26,870 nucleotides of DNA. It comes from a virus. The DNA lies in IMG/VR virus record IMGVR_UViG_3300037493_001858, positions 1 through 26,870 of that record; one strand, given 5' to 3'. The notes under the pieces were generated by a model. It ran no database searches. It worked only from the letters and a program-made list of their open reading frames with translations, and was not told where the DNA came from. Positions within the stretch are counted from its first letter, which is position 1. Each line of letters opens with the position of its first letter. This document shows, one piece after another, positions 1 through 20,834 of this stretch. The translations under genes were made by a program, and so were the position numbers.

Positions 1-1604
1 AAATCAAAATTAAAATTTCGCGCCGATGGCAAACGGGGATTGTCGATATAATGGAACAATGAATATAAATTGTTATTATAACCCTCTTTAAACCATAAAG
101 GATAATTAAACAAATTCGATGTTGAAACCGTTTGGCCGCCACTATTTACCGGCCCACCCGTGAACGAATCCGGATAATCATGTTTGATTGTCCCGTTTTG
201 ACGATCCACGCCGTCCCAAATTAACAATTTGTAATTCATGGCCGTGTGTTGATTCATCAACAACGCGTTTGTGTTTCCGGATGTTAATTGTCCCCCAAAA
301 AACAAATTCAATAAACCGCCTTGAAATGTGGCCAATATATCAAAAATTGTCCCCTCGTTATCAACGCCATCGGAACGGAAACGGGCCGGTGAAAATGGCA
401 ATGTGTTAACTAATTGACCTTTTTGAATTGGATTGAATGGATTATTCCATTCGACGATGTCGGAATATCGTTTCATTGCTTCATTGCCAATTATATCAAT
501 TGCATCCGGAACGTATTCATAACGACCAAACGCGAATCGTTCATCGTCAATCCATGCAAAACAAATTTTGTTTTCGACAATTCGATTGTCGTTCATCAAT
601 TGTTCCGAATCAATCCATGACGCGTTTGAAATAAATGAATCCTTTCGTTCAAAATATAATGTGTTCCCGACAATTTGCCAATCGCCGTTGAATGTCGGTT
701 TCATTAAATTATTCAAAAACGTTTCGGCCGTTTCGATTGGGTTATTATCTTCAATCATGTTTGATGATATAATACCTTGATTCAATCCCTTTTCAATCGT
801 CGCCGAAAACAATAATAAATTGTAATAAGGTGACGCCGGATCGGTTAAAATTGACGATTGAAAATTCAATCCACATTCGTCACATAATCGTTCCAAATAT
901 TCACGAACTAATCCGGTCGGATGTTTTTTATTGCATGTATCAAAAAAACCAATTGCACTACTCAATCCATCCAACAACGAATCCAAAATTCCATTTGGCG
1001 CCAAATCAGCATCGTCACATGTATCCTGGTCGCAATCGGTGAATGGAATCGCGCAAACGATGGAACAAATGAGAAAAAAAACGCCGGAAATAATCAAAAT
1101 GACCAAAACAAACGGCAATAATACCGTTGAAACAATATTCCCCAATAACGCCAATAAAAAACCCAACACGATATGCCACCATTTCGGCCGTCCCTCCAAA
1201 CAATAATTCACGTTAACCGGCGACGTAATAAATTGACCGATGATTGGTTTTGATTCGATGCAATTATATTGCAATTCATTTTCAATCACATTGGCCGTCA
1301 CCGAACAATCCGGTTCGCACCAATCCAACGAATCGCCCCGAATAATTCCAACAAACACCGGTTCCGAACAACACGAATCATAAATTTTGACATCGATTTT
1401 TTGATTGAATCCAAATGGATCATCAATCAACAATGTTTTTATCAATTGATAGCCATCATCATAAAATGTTAATTCGGATGAAAACGATCGTGTTGTTTTT
1501 CCGGCGTTATCTGTTCGCCTTAGTGTGACTTCAAACGTTTCGATTCCATCGATTCGACCGGTCAACAATGCGTTGTTGAACGTGATTTTCATGTTTGAAT
1601 TCAT
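1..1604 (-). CDS. Tail protein downstream of tape measure, partial (3' end outside window)
   Basis: An uninterrupted reading frame of 534 codons begins at ATG 1604, overlapping the tape measure stop as ATGA, and runs off the left edge without a stop. A second ATG lies four codons downstream. Its position directly after the tape measure gene suggests a distal tail, baseplate or tail-tip protein, but I do not recognise a named family. The N-terminal 130 residues look like a beta-rich domain with cysteine pairs (C78/C79, C96, C100, C115, C135). Residues about 142-186 are strongly hydrophobic (WWHIVLGFLLALLGNI, then VLLPFVLVILIISGVFFLI), enough for one or two membrane spans. They are followed by an acidic, cysteine-containing stretch (DCDQDTCDDAD) and a long soluble region. 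The hydrophobic block is unusual for a virion tail protein. The existence of the gene is secure; its exact role is inferred from position. Confidence 0.8.
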   Translation of the reverse strand, partial: MNSNMKITFNNALLTGRIDGIETFEVTLRRTDNAGKTTRSFSSELTFYDDGYQLIKTLLIDDPFGFNQKIDVKIYDSCCSEPVFVGIIRGDSLDWCEPDCSVTANVIENELQYNCIESKPIIGQFITSPVNVNYCLEGRPKWWHIVLGFLLALLGNIVSTVLLPFVLVILIISGVFFLICSIVCAIPFTDCDQDTCDDADLAPNGILDSLLDGLSSAIGFFDTCNKKHPTGLVREYLERLCDECGLNFQSSILTDPASPYYNLLLFSATIEKGLNQGIISSNMIEDNNPIETAETFLNNLMKPTFNGDWQIVGNTLYFERKDSFISNASWIDSEQLMNDNRIVENKICFAWIDDERFAFGRYEYVPDAIDIIGNEAMKRYSDIVEWNNPFNPIQKGQLVNTLPFSPARFRSDGVDNEGTIFDILATFQGGLLNLFFGGQLTSGNTNALLMNQHTAMNYKLLIWDGVDRQNGTIKHDYPDSFTGGPVNSGGQTVSTSNLFNYPLWFKEGYNNNLYSLFHYIDNPRLPSARNFNFD

Positions 1605-4600
1605 CGCGCTTTGTTTCTTATACGGTTGTTTTTATATTGAATCTTCGAAACGATTCCGTTGATTCCACGTTCATCGATGGACAAATTCAATCCCTTTTGT
1701 TCGCGAATTGCTTTCTCAATGCGATCCAACTTTCCATCCATTGAACGATTGTTCATCGTCATGATTTGGCCGTTCAATCCTTTCGCCAATAATGGATCGC
1801 GGCCGGAATGTATCGCCTCCAATAAAGGCCGGAACCTTTGCGTTTTTTCCTTTGTGATCACGAATTCGCCGCGATGGACGGTTCCGGCCGATTCGTATTT
1901 TCCGCCGTCGCCCGTATATCCACCCGTCGCAAATGACGCCGCCGCCCTTGCCTGGGCCCTTGCCGCCACCAATCCGGCCGCCAATGCAATCAATGTCGCC
2001 GCAATCGTAAACGGCGCCGCCGCGCCACCTTCGGCCGCCGCCTTTGAAATGGCCACCGCCGAATTCGCCACCAATTCAATCGCCGCCAATGCTTGTTGTG
2101 CGCGAACGAAATTCGCCTTTTTTTCGTTCAATTTATTCAAACGATCTTCCTCAATTTGCAACAATTCGGCGTTCCCTTTTTCGGCAATTTTCGCCGCCGC
2201 GTCAACACGTTTTTGTTGTGCGTTAATTTGTCCCTCGGTTTCGGAAATGGCGGCGTTCAACGCCGTGTTTGCCAAATCAACCGTCGCCTTTGCTACTTTC
2301 TCAATTCCATCCAAAACGGCTTGTTTCCGTTCATCGGCTAATTTTTTTGATTCGGCCGTTTGTTCATCATCCAACGCCAATATTTGGTCGCTGAAATCTT
2401 GACGCGCTTTCAAAATATCCAAATCGGCTTGTTTCTCAATCAACACGCGTTCATCGGCCGTCAATTTAACATTCAATAATTCGGCGTCCCTTTTACTTTC
2501 GATTCCTTGAACAACCAAACTTTCCTCCGATTGAATTGAATCCTTTAAATCGCCTAAATTGGCGTTCAATTGTTCTTTTATTGCGTTTCGTTCGGCCGTT
2601 GATCGTGACGCCGCGAATTGTTCAATCAAAAATCCACGTTGACGTTCGATTTCGGCCGTGTTTTGTTCAACCTCTGTCAATTGACTATCCAAATCAACTT
2701 GACGAATTTCGGCCAATGTTTGATTTCGTTTTTCCGCCGCTTGTTTTGTGACCTGGTCGATTTCGTCGTTTGTGTCGTTAATGACCTTTAACGTTTGCAA
2801 TCGTTGAACCTCTTTAAATTGTTGTTCGATTGTCGTTGTTAACGTTCCGGCCTCACGCGCCTTTTGAATTCGATCTTTTATTGTGTTTTCAATTTCATCA
2901 ATTTCGAATTGGGCCAATGCTTTAATTTTCGTTTTTTGTTCATCCAATGTTTTTGCATCGATGAATTCAATCGGTTGTTTTTTAACCTCAACACCCAAAT
3001 CACGAATTTCACGTTGCAAATCTTGAATCAATTCGCGCCGTTTGTCACCGGTTTTTTCCGCCGATTTAGATGTTTCGCCATCTACTTTTTTAATCGTTTG
3101 ACCGGAATCGACAATCTTTCTCGATAAATCATCAATCGCCTTTGTCGTTGCGTCGTATTGCGATTGCAACAAATCGGCGTCACCGGCGATTCCTTTCGCC
3201 AAATTCGCCGCGTTTTGCAATTCGATATTCCCCAACGCCGCGTTTTGATCCGTTGTTGCACGATTTTTATCGTTTGCCTTTTGTGTCGCCGTCGCCTTTG
3301 CCTCCTTTGCCTTTATCAATTTATCTTCCAAATCCAATTGTTGTTTGGTCAATTCAACCAATTGACCTTCGGCCGCCTTTGCAAATGCCACTTGTTTGAT
3401 TGATGCGACCAAATTTTGATATTGTGCATCTAATTCCTTAACGAATTTTTTTTCATCGGAAATGTTTTTGATTGTCGTTCCATATTGTCGATTCAATTGG
3501 TCAACCAATTTTTTCCGTTCGGCCGATCCGGTGTTGGCCGATTTTATTTCCTTGACTAATTTGTTCAATTCGGAAATCGATTTCGCCGATTCGGCGTTTG
3601 CCTCGGTGTTGGCCGTCGTTAACGCCGTTTGTGAATCCAACAATTTTTCGGTTTGAACCGCCGTTTCCTCAACCGAATCGCCAAAATCAACGAACAACGC
3701 CGCCGCCGTCGCCAATACGGAAACAACCAAACCGATTGGATTCGCTTTCAACGCCGCATTGAATCCGGTTGTTGCAATGGTCGCCGCGCGTGTGGCCGCC
3801 GTTTGTAATCCGGTTGATGTTGTTAATATATTCGTCGCCGTCGCCGATGCGCGTGTAAATAACGCCTTTGCACGTTGAACGACCAATCCAATTTGTTCCT
3901 GTATTAATAACGCCTTAAATCGCAATTCATAAATCAATTGTTGTTGAATTGCCGCCTTTTGTTGACCAACATAAAATGCAACCGCACCGGCCAACAACAA
4001 CAACGCCGTTTGGTTTTCCTCAACGAACGCCGGAACCTTTTGGATTGCCGTGATAAAATTGAACGCCGCGTCGGTTAACGTTTCGAAAATTGGCAATAAT
4101 CCCGTTCCGATGGATCGTTTCAATTCGTCGAACTTTCCTATCAATGTGGACAAACGACCGGCCGTTGATTGGGAAAGTTTTTCAGTCAAACCAAAATAAG
4201 AAATCACACTTTGGCCCTCGGTTGTTAAATCTTTGAACGCCTGTTCCAAATTAGTAAATGAAATTTGTCCCTCCGAACCCAATTTTTTCACTTGCGTTTC
4301 GGAAACACCCAATTGTTTCGCGAATTCACCGATGATTGGGATTCCGGCTTCAGTCAATTGGTTTATATCTTCAGCGAATAATGTTCCTTGAACACGCGCT
4401 TTCCCATAAATCACGGCCAATTCGTTGAAATCCTTTCCGGTCGCCGATGCAACGTCACCAATCCGGCCCAATGTTGTGGTTAATCCATCAACCGGTTCGC
4501 CGAATGCTAACAACGCCTTTCCGGCCTGGTTAACCTGTTCCGGTGTGAATGGCGTTTTGATTGAAAATTGGTTCAAATCTTCGAAAACCTCTTTCGCTTT

Positions 4601-4882
4601 TTCCGCCGATCCCAAAAACGTTTCCAATGAAATTTGAACGGTTTCATAATTCGAAACCGCTTCAATGGCGCCCTTTCCGAAATCAATCGCCGACGCCGCC
4701 AATGAAACGCCACCAAACGCCGCCGCCGCGCCCGTCAATGTTTTTTTCAATCCGGTCAATTGGGATTCGGCGCCCTTTGTCGCCGTTCCGATGTTTCCTA
4801 ATCCGGCCTTAACCGCCTCCAATTCGCGCCTTAATTGGGCCGTATCGGCTTGAATTTTGAATAGAACGTTTTTAACGGCCAT
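1601..4882 (-). CDS. Tail tape measure protein
   Basis: At 1093 residues this is the longest gene in the window. Tape measure proteins set tail length and often help DNA cross the envelope. The N-terminus (residues about 1-330) matches the common tape measure pattern: a short alpha-helical start, an Ala/Gly-rich hydrophobic stretch, and a conserved block containing FSIKTPFTPEQV and GRIGDVASATGKDF. Hydrophobic segments occur near ALLLLAGAVAFYVG and GLVVSVLATAAALFV. A long Lys/Glu/Gln-rich coiled-coil region follows (about 420-900). Near the C-terminus lies a second Ala-rich hydrophobic region and the motif FATGGYTGDGGKYESAGTVH, a glycine-rich element typical of tape measure C-termini. At the usual figure of roughly 0.15 nm per residue this predicts a tail near 160 nm, hence a siphovirus. 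It starts 7 bases after the tail chaperone frame and overlaps the next gene by 4 bases. Confidence 0.93.
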   Translation of the reverse strand: MAVKNVLFKIQADTAQLRRELEAVKAGLGNIGTATKGAESQLTGLKKTLTGAAAAFGGVSLAASAIDFGKGAIEAVSNYETVQISLETFLGSAEKAKEVFEDLNQFSIKTPFTPEQVNQAGKALLAFGEPVDGLTTTLGRIGDVASATGKDFNELAVIYGKARVQGTLFAEDINQLTEAGIPIIGEFAKQLGVSETQVKKLGSEGQISFTNLEQAFKDLTTEGQSVISYFGLTEKLSQSTAGRLSTLIGKFDELKRSIGTGLLPIFETLTDAAFNFITAIQKVPAFVEENQTALLLLAGAVAFYVGQQKAAIQQQLIYELRFKALLIQEQIGLVVQRAKALFTRASATATNILTTSTGLQTAATRAATIATTGFNAALKANPIGLVVSVLATAAALFVDFGDSVEETAVQTEKLLDSQTALTTANTEANAESAKSISELNKLVKEIKSANTGSAERKKLVDQLNRQYGTTIKNISDEKKFVKELDAQYQNLVASIKQVAFAKAAEGQLVELTKQQLDLEDKLIKAKEAKATATQKANDKNRATTDQNAALGNIELQNAANLAKGIAGDADLLQSQYDATTKAIDDLSRKIVDSGQTIKKVDGETSKSAEKTGDKRRELIQDLQREIRDLGVEVKKQPIEFIDAKTLDEQKTKIKALAQFEIDEIENTIKDRIQKAREAGTLTTTIEQQFKEVQRLQTLKVINDTNDEIDQVTKQAAEKRNQTLAEIRQVDLDSQLTEVEQNTAEIERQRGFLIEQFAASRSTAERNAIKEQLNANLGDLKDSIQSEESLVVQGIESKRDAELLNVKLTADERVLIEKQADLDILKARQDFSDQILALDDEQTAESKKLADERKQAVLDGIEKVAKATVDLANTALNAAISETEGQINAQQKRVDAAAKIAEKGNAELLQIEEDRLNKLNEKKANFVRAQQALAAIELVANSAVAISKAAAEGGAAAPFTIAATLIALAAGLVAARAQARAAASFATGGYTGDGGKYESAGTVHRGEFVITKEKTQRFRPLLEAIHSGRDPLLAKGLNGQIMTMNNRSMDGKLDRIEKAIREQKGLNLSIDERGINGIVSKIQYKNNRIRNKAR

Positions 4883-17234: not shown

Positions 17235-17680
17235 AAATTGGCAATTAGGCGATCCAAATCCTCGTTAATTAATTCCGAAATATATATTTCGACTTCTGTT
17301 CGTTCGGCTTTGGACGGTTCAAAAATAATCTTTTTTCGTCGTTCCTCGTTTCCTTTTGCTTTGTCGAAATCTTTGTCGTTGATAATGGCCAAATAAACAT
17401 CGCCGCCGTCCTCAACAACCTGGATTGAACCAATCAAATCGCCGGTGAATTGCAAATCGACATATCCGGTTTGAAATCCCAATTCCGAACGCGTTTTTTT
17501 CCATGATTTGGATTTGTAATTTCCAATTTTTGAACCGGATGTGGCTTTCCCGTCGTTGAAAATCCTTTGTTTCATTAATCCCTCCAACAACAAACCCCCT
17601 TGAACCAAATAATCTGTTTTTTTTCGGGAAATGTCGGTCGCCAATGACGATATTTTTCGGGCCAATTCATCCGGTGTCAT
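17231..17680 (-). CDS. Putative tail completion protein (HK97 gp10-like)
   Basis: The 149-residue protein overlaps the u-spanin gene by four bases. The core YVDLQFTGDLIGSIQVVED, preceded by a long N-terminal helix (ARKISSLATDISRKKTDYLV) and a basic segment (KSKSWKKTRSELG), resembles the tail-completion/head-tail adaptor proteins that close the tail tube or join it to the head. In those families the helical arm precedes a beta sandwich with a GDLxxSI-type turn, which is present here. The C-terminal part is charged and helical. The assignment is by pattern and neighbours, without a search. Confidence 0.6.
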   Translation of the reverse strand: MTPDELARKISSLATDISRKKTDYLVQGGLLLEGLMKQRIFNDGKATSGSKIGNYKSKSWKKTRSELGFQTGYVDLQFTGDLIGSIQVVEDGGDVYLAIINDKDFDKAKGNEERRKKIIFEPSKAERTEVEIYISELINEDLDRLIANL

Positions 17681-18090
17681 GTGCTCAATTTTTTAATTCC
17701 TAAAAATATTAATACCAACAACATGAACATGACGATGAAAATCAAAAAATCACGCCAATTTAATTTGTCAACATCGTTTTCCGATTTCGTGATTGTTTGA
17801 ATATATTTTTCAATCCGGATTGTGTCGGATGGACATTTTGTGTCCACAAAAATCGAATCGTTAACACGAACCAATTTCGTTTCAATTCGCGTTTTCATGT
17901 CCCGAATGAATATTGTGTCACGTCCATTGAATTGAACGATTGTGTCGAACGATTTGGATTGTGTCACGATTTCCGTATCACGATAAACGGTTTCGATTTG
18001 TTGCATGAACGGAAAACGTTCGCGACATTTTTTTTTCGTGACGCATCCGGAAACCAAAACCAAAACAAAAATGATGAATGTAAATTTCAT
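17677..18090 (-). CDS. u-spanin candidate (lipoprotein with C-terminal membrane span)
   Basis: The 137-residue protein starts with a signal peptide ending in a lipobox: FTFIIFVLVLVSGC, with Cys16 as the probable lipidated residue. The C-terminus has a strong membrane helix (FLIFIVMFMLLVLIFLGI, about residues 114-131) followed by basic KK. The middle is a beta-rich periplasmic domain with repeated aspartate-threonine pairs (RDTEIV, FDTIV, RDTIF, SDTIR). A single protein carrying an outer-membrane lipid anchor and an inner-membrane span is the defining layout of unimolecular spanins such as phage T1 gp11, which fuse the two membranes at the end of lysis. It sits in a lysis block with a holin-like gene, with the endolysin further upstream. 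Confidence 0.8.
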   Translation of the reverse strand: MKFTFIIFVLVLVSGCVTKKKCRERFPFMQQIETVYRDTEIVTQSKSFDTIVQFNGRDTIFIRDMKTRIETKLVRVNDSIFVDTKCPSDTIRIEKYIQTITKSENDVDKLNWRDFLIFIVMFMLLVLIFLGIKKLST

Positions 18091-18989: not shown

Positions 18990-19934
18990 TTAAGGTAGGC
19001 CATACACGAAACGCGATTGGTTGCATGTGATACAAATATCGTCCATCCTGGCAAATAATGACGGCAATGAATCGATGGATGTTTTGAATGTGGATTCATA
19101 TTGTTTTTCAAATTCGCCCAATAAAAATTCACATTTGGCCGAATCCAACAACGTCACCGAATTCAACCGGTCGGTTGTTAATGCTTCTTTTACAATTTCA
19201 ATTCCGGTTCGATATAATATTGGAAAACGTAGTTTTTGCGCCAATACACAACCAATTTCATCAACCGAACATTCGGCCGCCGCGTTCACTATCAAACCAA
19301 ACGATGTTGATGTTGTGGTTGATCCCGTCCATCCATTGGCCACCAAAAATTCCGATTTCGTTGTGGAACAATTACATGATCCTTTCACTTTCGTTTTGTT
19401 CGGATTGATGGCCGTGTTATCCATTGTGACATATATTTCCGACGTGTTCGATAAATAGTCAACGAAAATTTCCGCGTCGCCGTTTGCGTCGGTTGTAAAT
19501 GGAAACGAAACAACATCAACGCCATCAAATATTTCAATTGAATGCGTCAAATTTATTTCAACAATTCGGATTTTGATTGATTGAACCCTAATTCGTAACA
19601 TTCGCGAATCACGCGTTTGAATCCGGATCCCTTTGAAATTATTGGATGGCAATTCGAACGTCGATGTGAATTCGCCAATCTTCAATTCATCGACCAGGGA
19701 TTTCATTCGAAAATAAGGTGACGCATATTTTGAAATATCATTCAAAACCAATTGTGTGGCGAAATCAATTTTTTGCATCAACAACGAAATTCCCGACGTC
19801 GTTCCGGAATCGGCAATGTCCGCCGCGAACCTTAGATTGATTCCCTCCAAATCATCAACATACAATCCGGATTTCGGTGTTGTTGTGGAAACACATTTGA
19901 TTCCAATAAAATTTTCAAAACAATTTGTCGCCAT
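18990..19934 (-). CDS. Probable structural protein
   Basis: The 314-residue protein starts at ATG 19934 and overlaps the amidase gene end by 20 bases. The N-terminus (CFENFIGIKCVSTTTPKSGL, then YVDDLEGINLRFAADIADSG) resembles a block I recall from virion-associated proteins of Bacteroidota phages. The central part is beta-rich with KIRIVEINLTHSIEIFDG and AEIFVDYLSNTSEIYVTM, then a Cys pair (GSCNCSTTKS). The C-terminal third is helical (DSAKCEFLLGEFEKQYESTF) and ends with a second Cys pair (ICITCNQS). It has no enzyme motif. Its position between endolysin and lysis/connector genes is unusual. Confidence 0.65.
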   Translation of the reverse strand: MATNCFENFIGIKCVSTTTPKSGLYVDDLEGINLRFAADIADSGTTSGISLLMQKIDFATQLVLNDISKYASPYFRMKSLVDELKIGEFTSTFELPSNNFKGIRIQTRDSRMLRIRVQSIKIRIVEINLTHSIEIFDGVDVVSFPFTTDANGDAEIFVDYLSNTSEIYVTMDNTAINPNKTKVKGSCNCSTTKSEFLVANGWTGSTTTSTSFGLIVNAAAECSVDEIGCVLAQKLRFPILYRTGIEIVKEALTTDRLNSVTLLDSAKCEFLLGEFEKQYESTFKTSIDSLPSLFARMDDICITCNQSRFVYGLP

Positions 19935-20427
19935 AACCGAAAGGATCGTTTTTGTAAATATTTCTATCTTTTATTCCGATGGATTTTAAAAAATCCGGAA
20001 CCCAAAATGATGGACATGCTTTGTTCCCGAATTGATTGTGTCCACCAATTAAGACATCCGGCGCGTAATCAAGAACCATTTTGATAATTTCGGTCAATGT
20101 CTTTATTTGTGAAACCGTCATTGTGTTTTTCGGTGTTCCATCGGAATCCAAACCGCCAACATAAACAACATGACGCGAAATCGAATTGATTCCTTTCACG
20201 CCGTTTGTGATTTCCTTAGAATCAATCCACAAATCGCCGTTGTGTTCAACAAATCGATGTCGAATTCCGTCCAATAATATCATGTCGGAATATCCGACCT
20301 TTGTCCAACCGCGTCCATTTGGCGGCGGCGATGTATGCCATTGAATGATTTGTTCCGGTGTGACCTTTTGGCCCTCACGCGTCGCCGTGCAATGGATCAC
20401 GAAATATTTGAATGGTTGAATTTGCAT
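19915..20427 (-). CDS. N-acetylmuramoyl-L-alanine amidase (endolysin, T7 lysozyme type)
   Basis: The 170-residue enzyme cleaves the amide bond between N-acetylmuramic acid and L-alanine of peptidoglycan. I chose ATG 20427; a TTG at 20433 is an alternative adding two residues. The metal and catalytic positions of T7 lysozyme are present with near-identical spacing: H12 in YFVIHCTATREG, Y46 in GYSD, and GGHNQFGNKACPSF providing H130, K136 and C138. No signal peptide is present, so release would need the holin. It is preceded by an overlapping hypothetical gene and followed by a structural gene. Confidence 0.95.
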   Translation of the reverse strand: MQIQPFKYFVIHCTATREGQKVTPEQIIQWHTSPPPNGRGWTKVGYSDMILLDGIRHRFVEHNGDLWIDSKEITNGVKGINSISRHVVYVGGLDSDGTPKNTMTVSQIKTLTEIIKMVLDYAPDVLIGGHNQFGNKACPSFWVPDFLKSIGIKDRNIYKNDPFGYGDKLF

Positions 20428-20429
20428 GT

Positions 20430-20834
20430 TCAAAGTTGTTCAATTGGTTCATCAATTGATTCGGGTTTTTTAACGGTTTTTAAACTGAAAAAAAACACAT
20501 CGAATTTTTCATTTTTTATCACAACATCGAATTCAACATTCGGATGTTCAATTTTAATTTTTTCGAAAACGGATTTGATGTTTTCGTTTTGCTTTCGCCT
20601 CAAATATGTCGATTGAACGGTGAAAATCACGCCGTTTTTTTCGTCGATGTGACGCGGCCAATTTGTTTTCATCATTTTGTATTTCTTATTCCTTTCGTAA
20701 TCCCTTAACGCGTCCAAATGCGACGGTTCAAACGCCCAAACGAACAAATCATCGTTCACATCGAAATGAATCAAATCAACGATGAATTTCAACGTTTTTG
20801 GAATTTCGTGAATGTCGTGTTTGCAATAAATCAT
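20430..20834 (-). CDS. Hypothetical protein upstream of endolysin
   Basis: I place the start at ATG 20834, giving 134 residues; a TTG at 20852 in the same frame overlaps a -7-like box. The protein begins IYCKHDIHEIPKTLKFIVDL, contains DLFVWAFEPSHLDALRDYER, a basic segment with TYLRRKQNENIKSVFEKIKI, and ends in an acidic tail with IDEPIEQL. It is soluble with mixed alpha/beta content and no clear motif. It begins a new gene block just downstream of the terminator at 20864-20901. A TATCTTTG sequence at 20857-20850 could be its -7 element, though the upstream -33 part is poor. Confidence 0.7.
   Translation of the reverse strand: MIYCKHDIHEIPKTLKFIVDLIHFDVNDDLFVWAFEPSHLDALRDYERNKKYKMMKTNWPRHIDEKNGVIFTVQSTYLRRKQNENIKSVFEKIKIEHPNVEFDVVIKNEKFDVFFFSLKTVKKPESIDEPIEQL

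What the first reader, a model, noticed from the sequence alone, without database searches (positions are those of the whole stretch)
1047..1181. Membrane-like hydrophobic segment inside a tail protein
Residues about 142-186 of the protein following the tape measure are continuously hydrophobic for roughly 45 residues and begin with WW, followed by a cysteine/aspartate-rich loop. Tail-tip proteins are normally soluble in the virion. A buried segment could be released on adsorption to form a channel across the envelope, a role usually assigned to tape measure proteins.
Basis: partly seen in the sequence, partly recalled or inferred. Interest (0 to 1): 0.55.

Follow-up and report, generated by a model that had tools for sequence, protein, structure and literature searches.

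The report
Phage tail hub with greasy hairpin
The gene makes the hub protein at the tip of a phage tail, and a long, very greasy helical hairpin is built into it near the spot where better-known phages keep the part that closes the tail and is thought to touch the bacterial outer membrane.

Summary
Residues 142-186 of the ORF downstream of the tape measure (minus strand, 3..1604) are the most hydrophobic 45-mer of the window, with 48 residues free of D/E/K/R. The ORF is cut by the contig edge; full-length relatives have ~584 aa. By predicted fold the protein is a gp27/gp44/pb3-type tail hub. The stretch is predicted as one 45-residue helix plus a return helix, inserted between two adjacent hub strands; in a hairpin-less relative the same strands are joined by 8 residues. 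The site is hydrophobic in 78 of 83 evaluable non-redundant homologues (19-mer KD >=1.6; 77 at >=2.0), and none has a >=2.0 stretch elsewhere. Five flanking cysteines accompany it in 76 of 78 and are missing from the hairpin-less clade. Best reading: a built-in hydrophobic plug/penetration hairpin, analogous to the T5 pb3 plug, lambda gpI and the RcGTA/R4C megatron iris. New variant of a known kind.

The parts
3..1604 (-). Tail hub protein, residues 1-534 (3' end cut off by the contig edge; full-length relatives ~584 aa)
   Evidence: ORF; full-length relatives; hub fold of the 93%-identical relative L014
1281..1604 (-). Residues 1-108, first tail-tube-like hub domain (hdI); aligned with the tail-tip protein of phage Chi (8vjh_D)
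   Evidence: VIA-align row 44, model 1..108, Z 6.3, rmsd 3.6, 93 aligned
1197..1217 (-). Residues 130-136, hub strand on the N side of the insertion
   Evidence: AF2 model of L014, same numbering
930..1196 (-). Residues 137-225, hydrophobic helical hairpin insertion; replaced by an 8-residue loop in relative L050
1050..1184 (-). Residues 141-185, continuous predicted hydrophobic helix with a central proline P164 (proline within 3 columns in 62 of 78 homologues)
1038..1181 (-). Residues 142-189, 48-residue stretch without D/E/K/R
942..998 (-). Residues 203-221, return helix
909..929 (-). Residues 226-232, hub strand on the C side of the insertion
1260..1262 (-). C115, cysteine accompanying the hairpin
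1200..1202 (-). C135, cysteine at the base of the hairpin
933..935 (-). C224, cysteine at the base of the hairpin
882..884 (-). C241 of the CxxC after the hairpin
873..875 (-). C244 of the CxxC after the hairpin
1601..4882 (-). Tape measure protein (PF20155), immediately upstream, 4-nt overlap

Best explanation
The ORF encodes the baseplate/tail hub of a siphophage-like virus, probably of Bacteroidota. Between two adjacent strands, just after its first hub domain, it carries an ~89-residue hydrophobic helical hairpin. In the virion trimer the three hairpins most likely sit in or under the tail lumen as a plug, against the tape-measure end. On receptor binding the hub opens and the hairpins swing out and insert into the outer membrane. 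The central proline would let each long helix fold into two membrane-length helices, six per trimer, to anchor the tip and help form the first pore. Shown here: the gene position, the predicted hub fold, the insertion site, the conserved hydrophobicity and the flanking cysteines. Inferred: trimer, plug position, release and membrane insertion.
For: Fold: Foldseek's first 21 PDB matches (E <= 3.2e-4) are hub or spike proteins of phage tails and contractile injection systems (some named from their titles). VIA-align places T5 pb3 (7zhj_b Z 9.8, rmsd 5.1, 265 aligned), phage 80alpha (6v8i_AE Z 8.5, rmsd 4.9, 301 aligned) and Mu gp44 (1wru Z 8.4, rmsd 5.2, 289 aligned) among the top rows. Architecture: a 45-residue helix and a return helix between strands 130-136 and 226-232, with the two strands joined by 8 residues in hairpin-less L050, itself hub-like. 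Conservation: 78 of 83 evaluable cluster representatives; of the 78, 52 have no charge in 39 columns and all have P140. Controls: hubs of lambda (gpJ 1.00), Mu (gp44 0.91), JBD30 (gp53 1.39) and T5 (pb3 1.06) have no such segment; known or proposed membrane-active pieces score less (gpI 1.78, pb2 1.82) than the window segment, 3.14. Precedents. Large ORF in the tape-measure place immediately upstream in 76 of 78 homologues with enough sequence.
Against: No experiment places this protein in a virion or a membrane. The helix has moderate pLDDT (block means 69-80), and only monomers could be modelled. A strongly hydrophobic helix can also be a buried trimeric coil: one face is more hydrophobic than the others (moment 0.69 against 0.32 in shuffles, fraction 0.022). 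Hairpin-less relatives exist (L050, L052, L057, and probably L104), so the element is not essential to every hub; L143 has an amphipathic version (max 1.15). Some hubs carry only 27-37 hydrophobic residues, enough for one crossing.
Confidence: 0.6

Rival explanations
1. Soluble plug only: in the trimer the three hydrophobic helices form a buried bundle that closes the lumen or grips the tape-measure C terminus and never enters a membrane.
For: Hydrophobic moment above shuffles. T5, 80alpha and JBD30 tape-measure C termini form trimeric coils in the hub, and lambda gpI acts as a tripod plug (passages). A hydrophobic trimer core would also conserve hydrophobicity.
Against: In a soluble three-helix bundle one or two faces are usually polar; here all heptad positions are hydrophobic (means 1.70-4.12) and 52 of 78 homologues have no charge in 39 columns.
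Confidence: 0.27
2. The segment is used during assembly, holding the hub at the host inner membrane while the tail tip is built, and has no role in infection.
For: Two TM-length stretches with opposite flank charges (N flank +0.9, C loop -3.9 mean net) could act as an anchor.
Against: I recall no hub that assembles this way. The insertion lies near the site of the plug/penetration elements of other hubs. The control hubs of lambda, Mu, JBD30 and T5 have no such segment.
Confidence: 0.06
3. The ORF is a cellular membrane protein or an unrelated membrane gene misread as a tail gene.
For: Very high hydrophobicity; weak NCBIfam match to an antiporter subunit (E 0.039, 13.8 bits against a cut-off of 116).
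Against: Direct synteny with the tape measure across viral contigs, 4-nt overlap, hub fold, and a relative in cultured Flavobacterium phages.
Confidence: 0.01

Closest known systems
T5 baseplate hub pb3 and its plug (PMC10038345; passages read)
   Same: Hub fold (VIA Z 9.8). A plug in the hdII insertion closes the tube, and its tip (LFGL) is proposed to enter the outer leaflet.
   Different: The T5 plug refolds as a beta-hairpin with a 4-residue hydrophobic tip, and pb3 has no 19-mer above KD 1.06. Here it is a ~45-residue hydrophobic helix.
Lambda gpI with gpJ/gpL (PMC11101478 passages and section 10; PMC10721106 passages)
   Same: Two hydrophobic helices, plug in the lumen, proposed outer-membrane insertion.
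   Different: A separate protein in lambda, less hydrophobic (1.78); here the element is part of the hub chain.
RcGTA / roseophage R4C megatron iris-penetration domain (PMC7296036, PMC10276861; passages read)
   Same: Helix of a hub-type protein constricts the channel and is proposed to form an outer-membrane pore. In those baseplates a four-Cys Fe-S site flanks an insertion after the attachment domain.
   Different: There the element is the short N terminus (1-46) of a giant protein and the Fe-S site is in another protein; here one protein carries both a long hairpin and flanking cysteines.
PHROG 12387 (Flavobacterium phage Fpv5 gp09; relatives in tant8-1 and 1/32), unknown function
   Same: Gene after the tape measure; homologous by profile (Fpv5 gp09 E 3.8e-23; PHROG match); TM-like segments at the corresponding place.
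   Different: 25% identity over a 246-residue stretch (relative L010 as query), segments less hydrophobic (best 19-mers 2.07-2.49), without the cysteine set at the hairpin (sequence).

Membership tests
gp27/gp44/pb3-type tail hub (baseplate hub protein) | Hub fold with two tail-tube-like domains and intervening hdII/hdIII | tested here: met
   Predicted model; Foldseek and VIA-align rows are hubs; hairpin-less relative too
gp27/gp44/pb3-type tail hub (baseplate hub protein) | Gene in the tail-tip module after the tape measure | tested here: met
   76 of 78 homologues with room; window
gp27/gp44/pb3-type tail hub (baseplate hub protein) | Trimer at the tail tip of the virion | not testable with these tools
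   No multimer prediction and no proteomics at hand
Hub plug / penetration element (T5 plug, lambda gpI, RcGTA iris) | Element located in or beside hdII | tested here: inconclusive
   Insertion between strands 130-136 and 226-232, after a domain ending near 108, as expected; but coordinates were not at hand, so the site was not superposed on the T5 insertion
Hub plug / penetration element (T5 plug, lambda gpI, RcGTA iris) | Hydrophobic, membrane-competent sequence | tested here: met
Hub plug / penetration element (T5 plug, lambda gpI, RcGTA iris) | Closes the lumen before, and contacts the outer membrane after, adsorption | not testable with these tools
   Needs cryo-EM or biochemistry
gpL-type Fe-S site | Four cysteines flanking an insertion after hdI that bind an Fe-S cluster | tested here: inconclusive
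   Five cysteines (115, 135, 224, 241, 244) flank the insertion in 76 of 78. Best local HHalign to lambda gpL pairs the 224-256 region with gpL 177-218, but at probability 0.7%

The most novel reading that the evidence does not exclude
In this phage lineage the hub itself makes the outer-membrane pore: three hairpins, each folding at the central proline into two membrane helices, form a six-helix ring, and a cysteine site at the hairpin base (Fe-S, zinc or disulfide) is the latch that holds the hairpins in the closed tip.
Probability: 0.18. Interest if true: 0.75.

Novelty: new variant of a known kind. Interest (0 to 1): 0.5.

Why it matters
How siphophages make the first hole in the outer membrane is open. 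In the systems read about here the candidate element is short (T5), in a separate protein (lambda) or at the N terminus of a giant protein (RcGTA/R4C). Here it is one long, conserved hairpin within a single-chain hub, with natural long, short and missing versions in related hubs, which makes its role directly testable. It also gives a likely function to post-tape-measure proteins that match only PHROGs of unknown function and no Pfam family.

Tried and rejected
Sequence search of the PDB with the family profile: no match at E<=10, so the hub assignment rests on predicted structure and synteny. tblastn of the window protein, and of relatives L047, L050 and L049, against named phages: none. HHalign of the family with single sequences of pb3, gpL, gpJ, JBD30 gp50 and gp53: nothing significant. 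Idea that the hub hairpin replaces TM segments of the tape measure: rejected, since tape measures of hairpin-bearing loci keep TM-like segments too. Idea that the Cys/Asp-rich loop is a functional metal loop: not supported, C191/C196 in 16 of 37. MAFFT places part of the hairpin-less clade badly: its R-x-GGLL...NFIFASGI stretch most likely corresponds to R-DYIKNVCDKCGLTFQSSIL (my reading), so gaps at 241/244 there are uncertain. The Rickettsiales MAG hit (L068) was not used for the host call because binning of viral contigs is unreliable. Paper searches for a membrane hairpin in a Bacteroidota phage hub listed no such report; most subscription papers and preprints are not in that library. The drift null does not account for shared ancestry, so its 32 rows are not independent.

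Selection effects: homologues were found with short peptide patterns. One of two patterns, one of six and one of six lie in or beside the hairpin and favour hairpin-bearing members; the patterns lie elsewhere. One search kept the best 80 of 124 relatives. L088 (cut) was dropped, leaving 83 of 84 clusters.

Full report
Observation. The minus-strand ORF 3..1604 follows the tape measure (PF20155, E 2.4e-23) with a 4-nt overlap. Its residues 142-186 (window 1047-1181) have no D/E/K/R, the best 19-mer has a Kyte-Doolittle mean of 3.14, and it is the most hydrophobic 45-mer of all frames of the window. The ORF runs off the contig; the record held as G000 is a virus record of 26,870 bases, the window itself. 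In the relative L014 the protein has 584 residues and is followed by a 938-aa protein, a 360-aa protein and the portal, so roughly 5 kb between the contig ends is probably missing here.

What the protein is. The window protein has no Pfam match and weak matches to two PHROGs of unknown function. The family profile has no PDB sequence match. AlphaFold2 on the 93%-identical full-length relative L014, with an alignment of 37 sequences, gave mean pLDDT 83.9 and pTM 0.75. Foldseek's first 21 PDB matches are hub or spike proteins of phage tails and contractile injection systems (MuSo2 43-kDa tail protein, phage Mu, T4 gp27 and others). VIA-align gives Z 10.6 to 8.4 for the first 20 rows, including T5 pb3 closed and open (9.8, 9.3), 80alpha (8.5) and Mu gp44 (8.4). 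Such Z values are not high, but the rows are consistently hubs and span the whole model. Together with the gene position this makes a tail hub the clear reading.

Where the hydrophobic stretch sits. In the model, residues 141-185 are one helix, 203-221 a return helix, and the pair lies between strands 130-136 and 226-232. A relative without the stretch (L050, pLDDT 68.9) has what look like the same two strands, 150-156 and 165-171, joined by 8 residues, and is also hub-like. The stretch is thus an insertion of about 89 residues between two hub strands, just after the first tube-like domain (1-108 aligns with a phage Chi tail-tip protein).

Conservation. Across 37 aligned sequences the region has a 19-mer of at least 2.2 in 34; the three without are L050, L052 and L057. 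In most of the more distant relatives the segment's identity to L014 falls faster than that of the rest (for example L019 0.29 against 0.51, L036 0.21 against 0.49, L040 0.12 against 0.34; L043 is an exception, 0.35 against 0.34) while the hydrophobicity stays. Expanding the set gave 149 loci with a hub hit, 84 clusters at 90%, 83 evaluable: 78 have a 19-mer of at least 1.6 at the site, 77 at least 2.0, and none of the 83 has one of at least 2.0 elsewhere in the protein (8 have 1.6 or more elsewhere). The five exceptions are L050, L052, L057 and L104 (no hairpin, or unclear for L104) and L143 (amphipathic, 1.15). In the 78, P140 is invariant, 52 have no charged residue in 39 columns, 62 have a proline near the middle (P164), and the region after the helix is acidic (mean net -3.9). 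Substituted sites are more hydrophobic than a BLOSUM62 drift null at p<=0.05 in 27 of 32 comparisons; L007, L031, L038, L039 and L049 are not. dN/dS is 0.04-0.16 in the segment, 0.12-0.18 in the rest (10 pairs).

Cysteines. C96, C100 and C348 are present in 37 of 37. C115, C135, C224, C241 and C244 accompany the hairpin: all five in 76 of 78 hairpin-bearing clusters (not L049, L147), none in L050, L052, L057 or L104, all five in L143. In RcGTA and R4C hubs four cysteines flanking an insertion after the attachment domain bind an Fe-S cluster, and in JBD30 four cysteines of the upper baseplate protein bind a putative metal (passages). The layout is alike; homology is not shown (gpL comparison not significant).

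Cultured relatives. Flavobacterium phages Fpv5, tant8-1 and 1/32 carry a homologue right after the tape measure, PHROG 12387 for Fpv5, with TM-like segments at the corresponding place (best 19-mers 2.09, 2.07 and 2.49). Polaribacter phage P12002L's post-tape-measure protein, a BFVD fold match, has none. Hosts of the window family are therefore probably Bacteroidota; of two MAG hits one is labelled Bacteroidetes, one Rickettsiales.

Controls. Hubs of lambda, Mu, JBD30 and T5 reach at most 1.00, 0.91, 1.39 and 1.06; lambda gpI reaches 1.78 and T5 tape measure pb2 1.82. The window segment exceeds all of these.

Mechanism. In T5 the hub plug closes the tube and after FhuA binding refolds into a hairpin whose tip is placed in the outer leaflet, with the tape measure proposed to make the channel. 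Lambda gpI's two hydrophobic helices are proposed to enter the outer membrane. In RcGTA and R4C the iris helices of the megatron constrict the tube and are proposed to form an outer-membrane pore. The hairpin here resembles these in place and character but is longer and more hydrophobic than the ones measured, and part of a single-chain hub. The likeliest function is therefore plug and outer-membrane anchor or pore; a purely internal plug is the main rival. Tape measures of the same loci keep TM-like segments (45 of 48 loci examined have a tape measure in view; only Fpv5's has none at the threshold), so a division of labour (hub at the outer membrane, tape measure further in) fits better than replacement.

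Limits. The hub fold and the insertion are predictions; membrane insertion is inference.

Noticed in passing
window 17677-18090 (-): 137-aa protein with a lipobox-like start (MKFTFIIFVLVLVSGC) and a C-terminal hydrophobic helix, the layout of a one-protein spanin (recalled pattern); no PHROG match.
   Followed up: no
window 19915-20433 (-): 172-aa protein that reads like an amidase-type endolysin (FVIHCTATREG..., GGHNQFGNKACPSF; recalled pattern); not scanned.
   Followed up: no
window 561-563, 1305-1307, 1317-1319 (-): C348, C100 and C96 of the hub are present in all 37 aligned sequences, hairpin or not, which suggests a second metal or disulfide site.
   Followed up: partly
L050, L051, L052, L053, L054, L056, L057: Hub relatives without the hairpin. 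The 1007-aa tape measures of L050, L053 and L056 have 3-5 TM-like segments up to 2.7, others of the clade 2-3. Possible compensation, too few lineages to judge.
   Followed up: partly
L028, L029, L030, L048: Hubs with a shortened hydrophobic segment (uncharged runs of 25-31 residues; 33 residues covered at KD>=1.6 in L030 and L048), enough for one membrane crossing rather than two.
   Followed up: partly
window 1-26870: Both contig ends lie inside genes (hub 3' end, portal 5' end); in L014 a 938-aa and a 360-aa protein lie between them, so the record is probably a fragment.
   Followed up: partly
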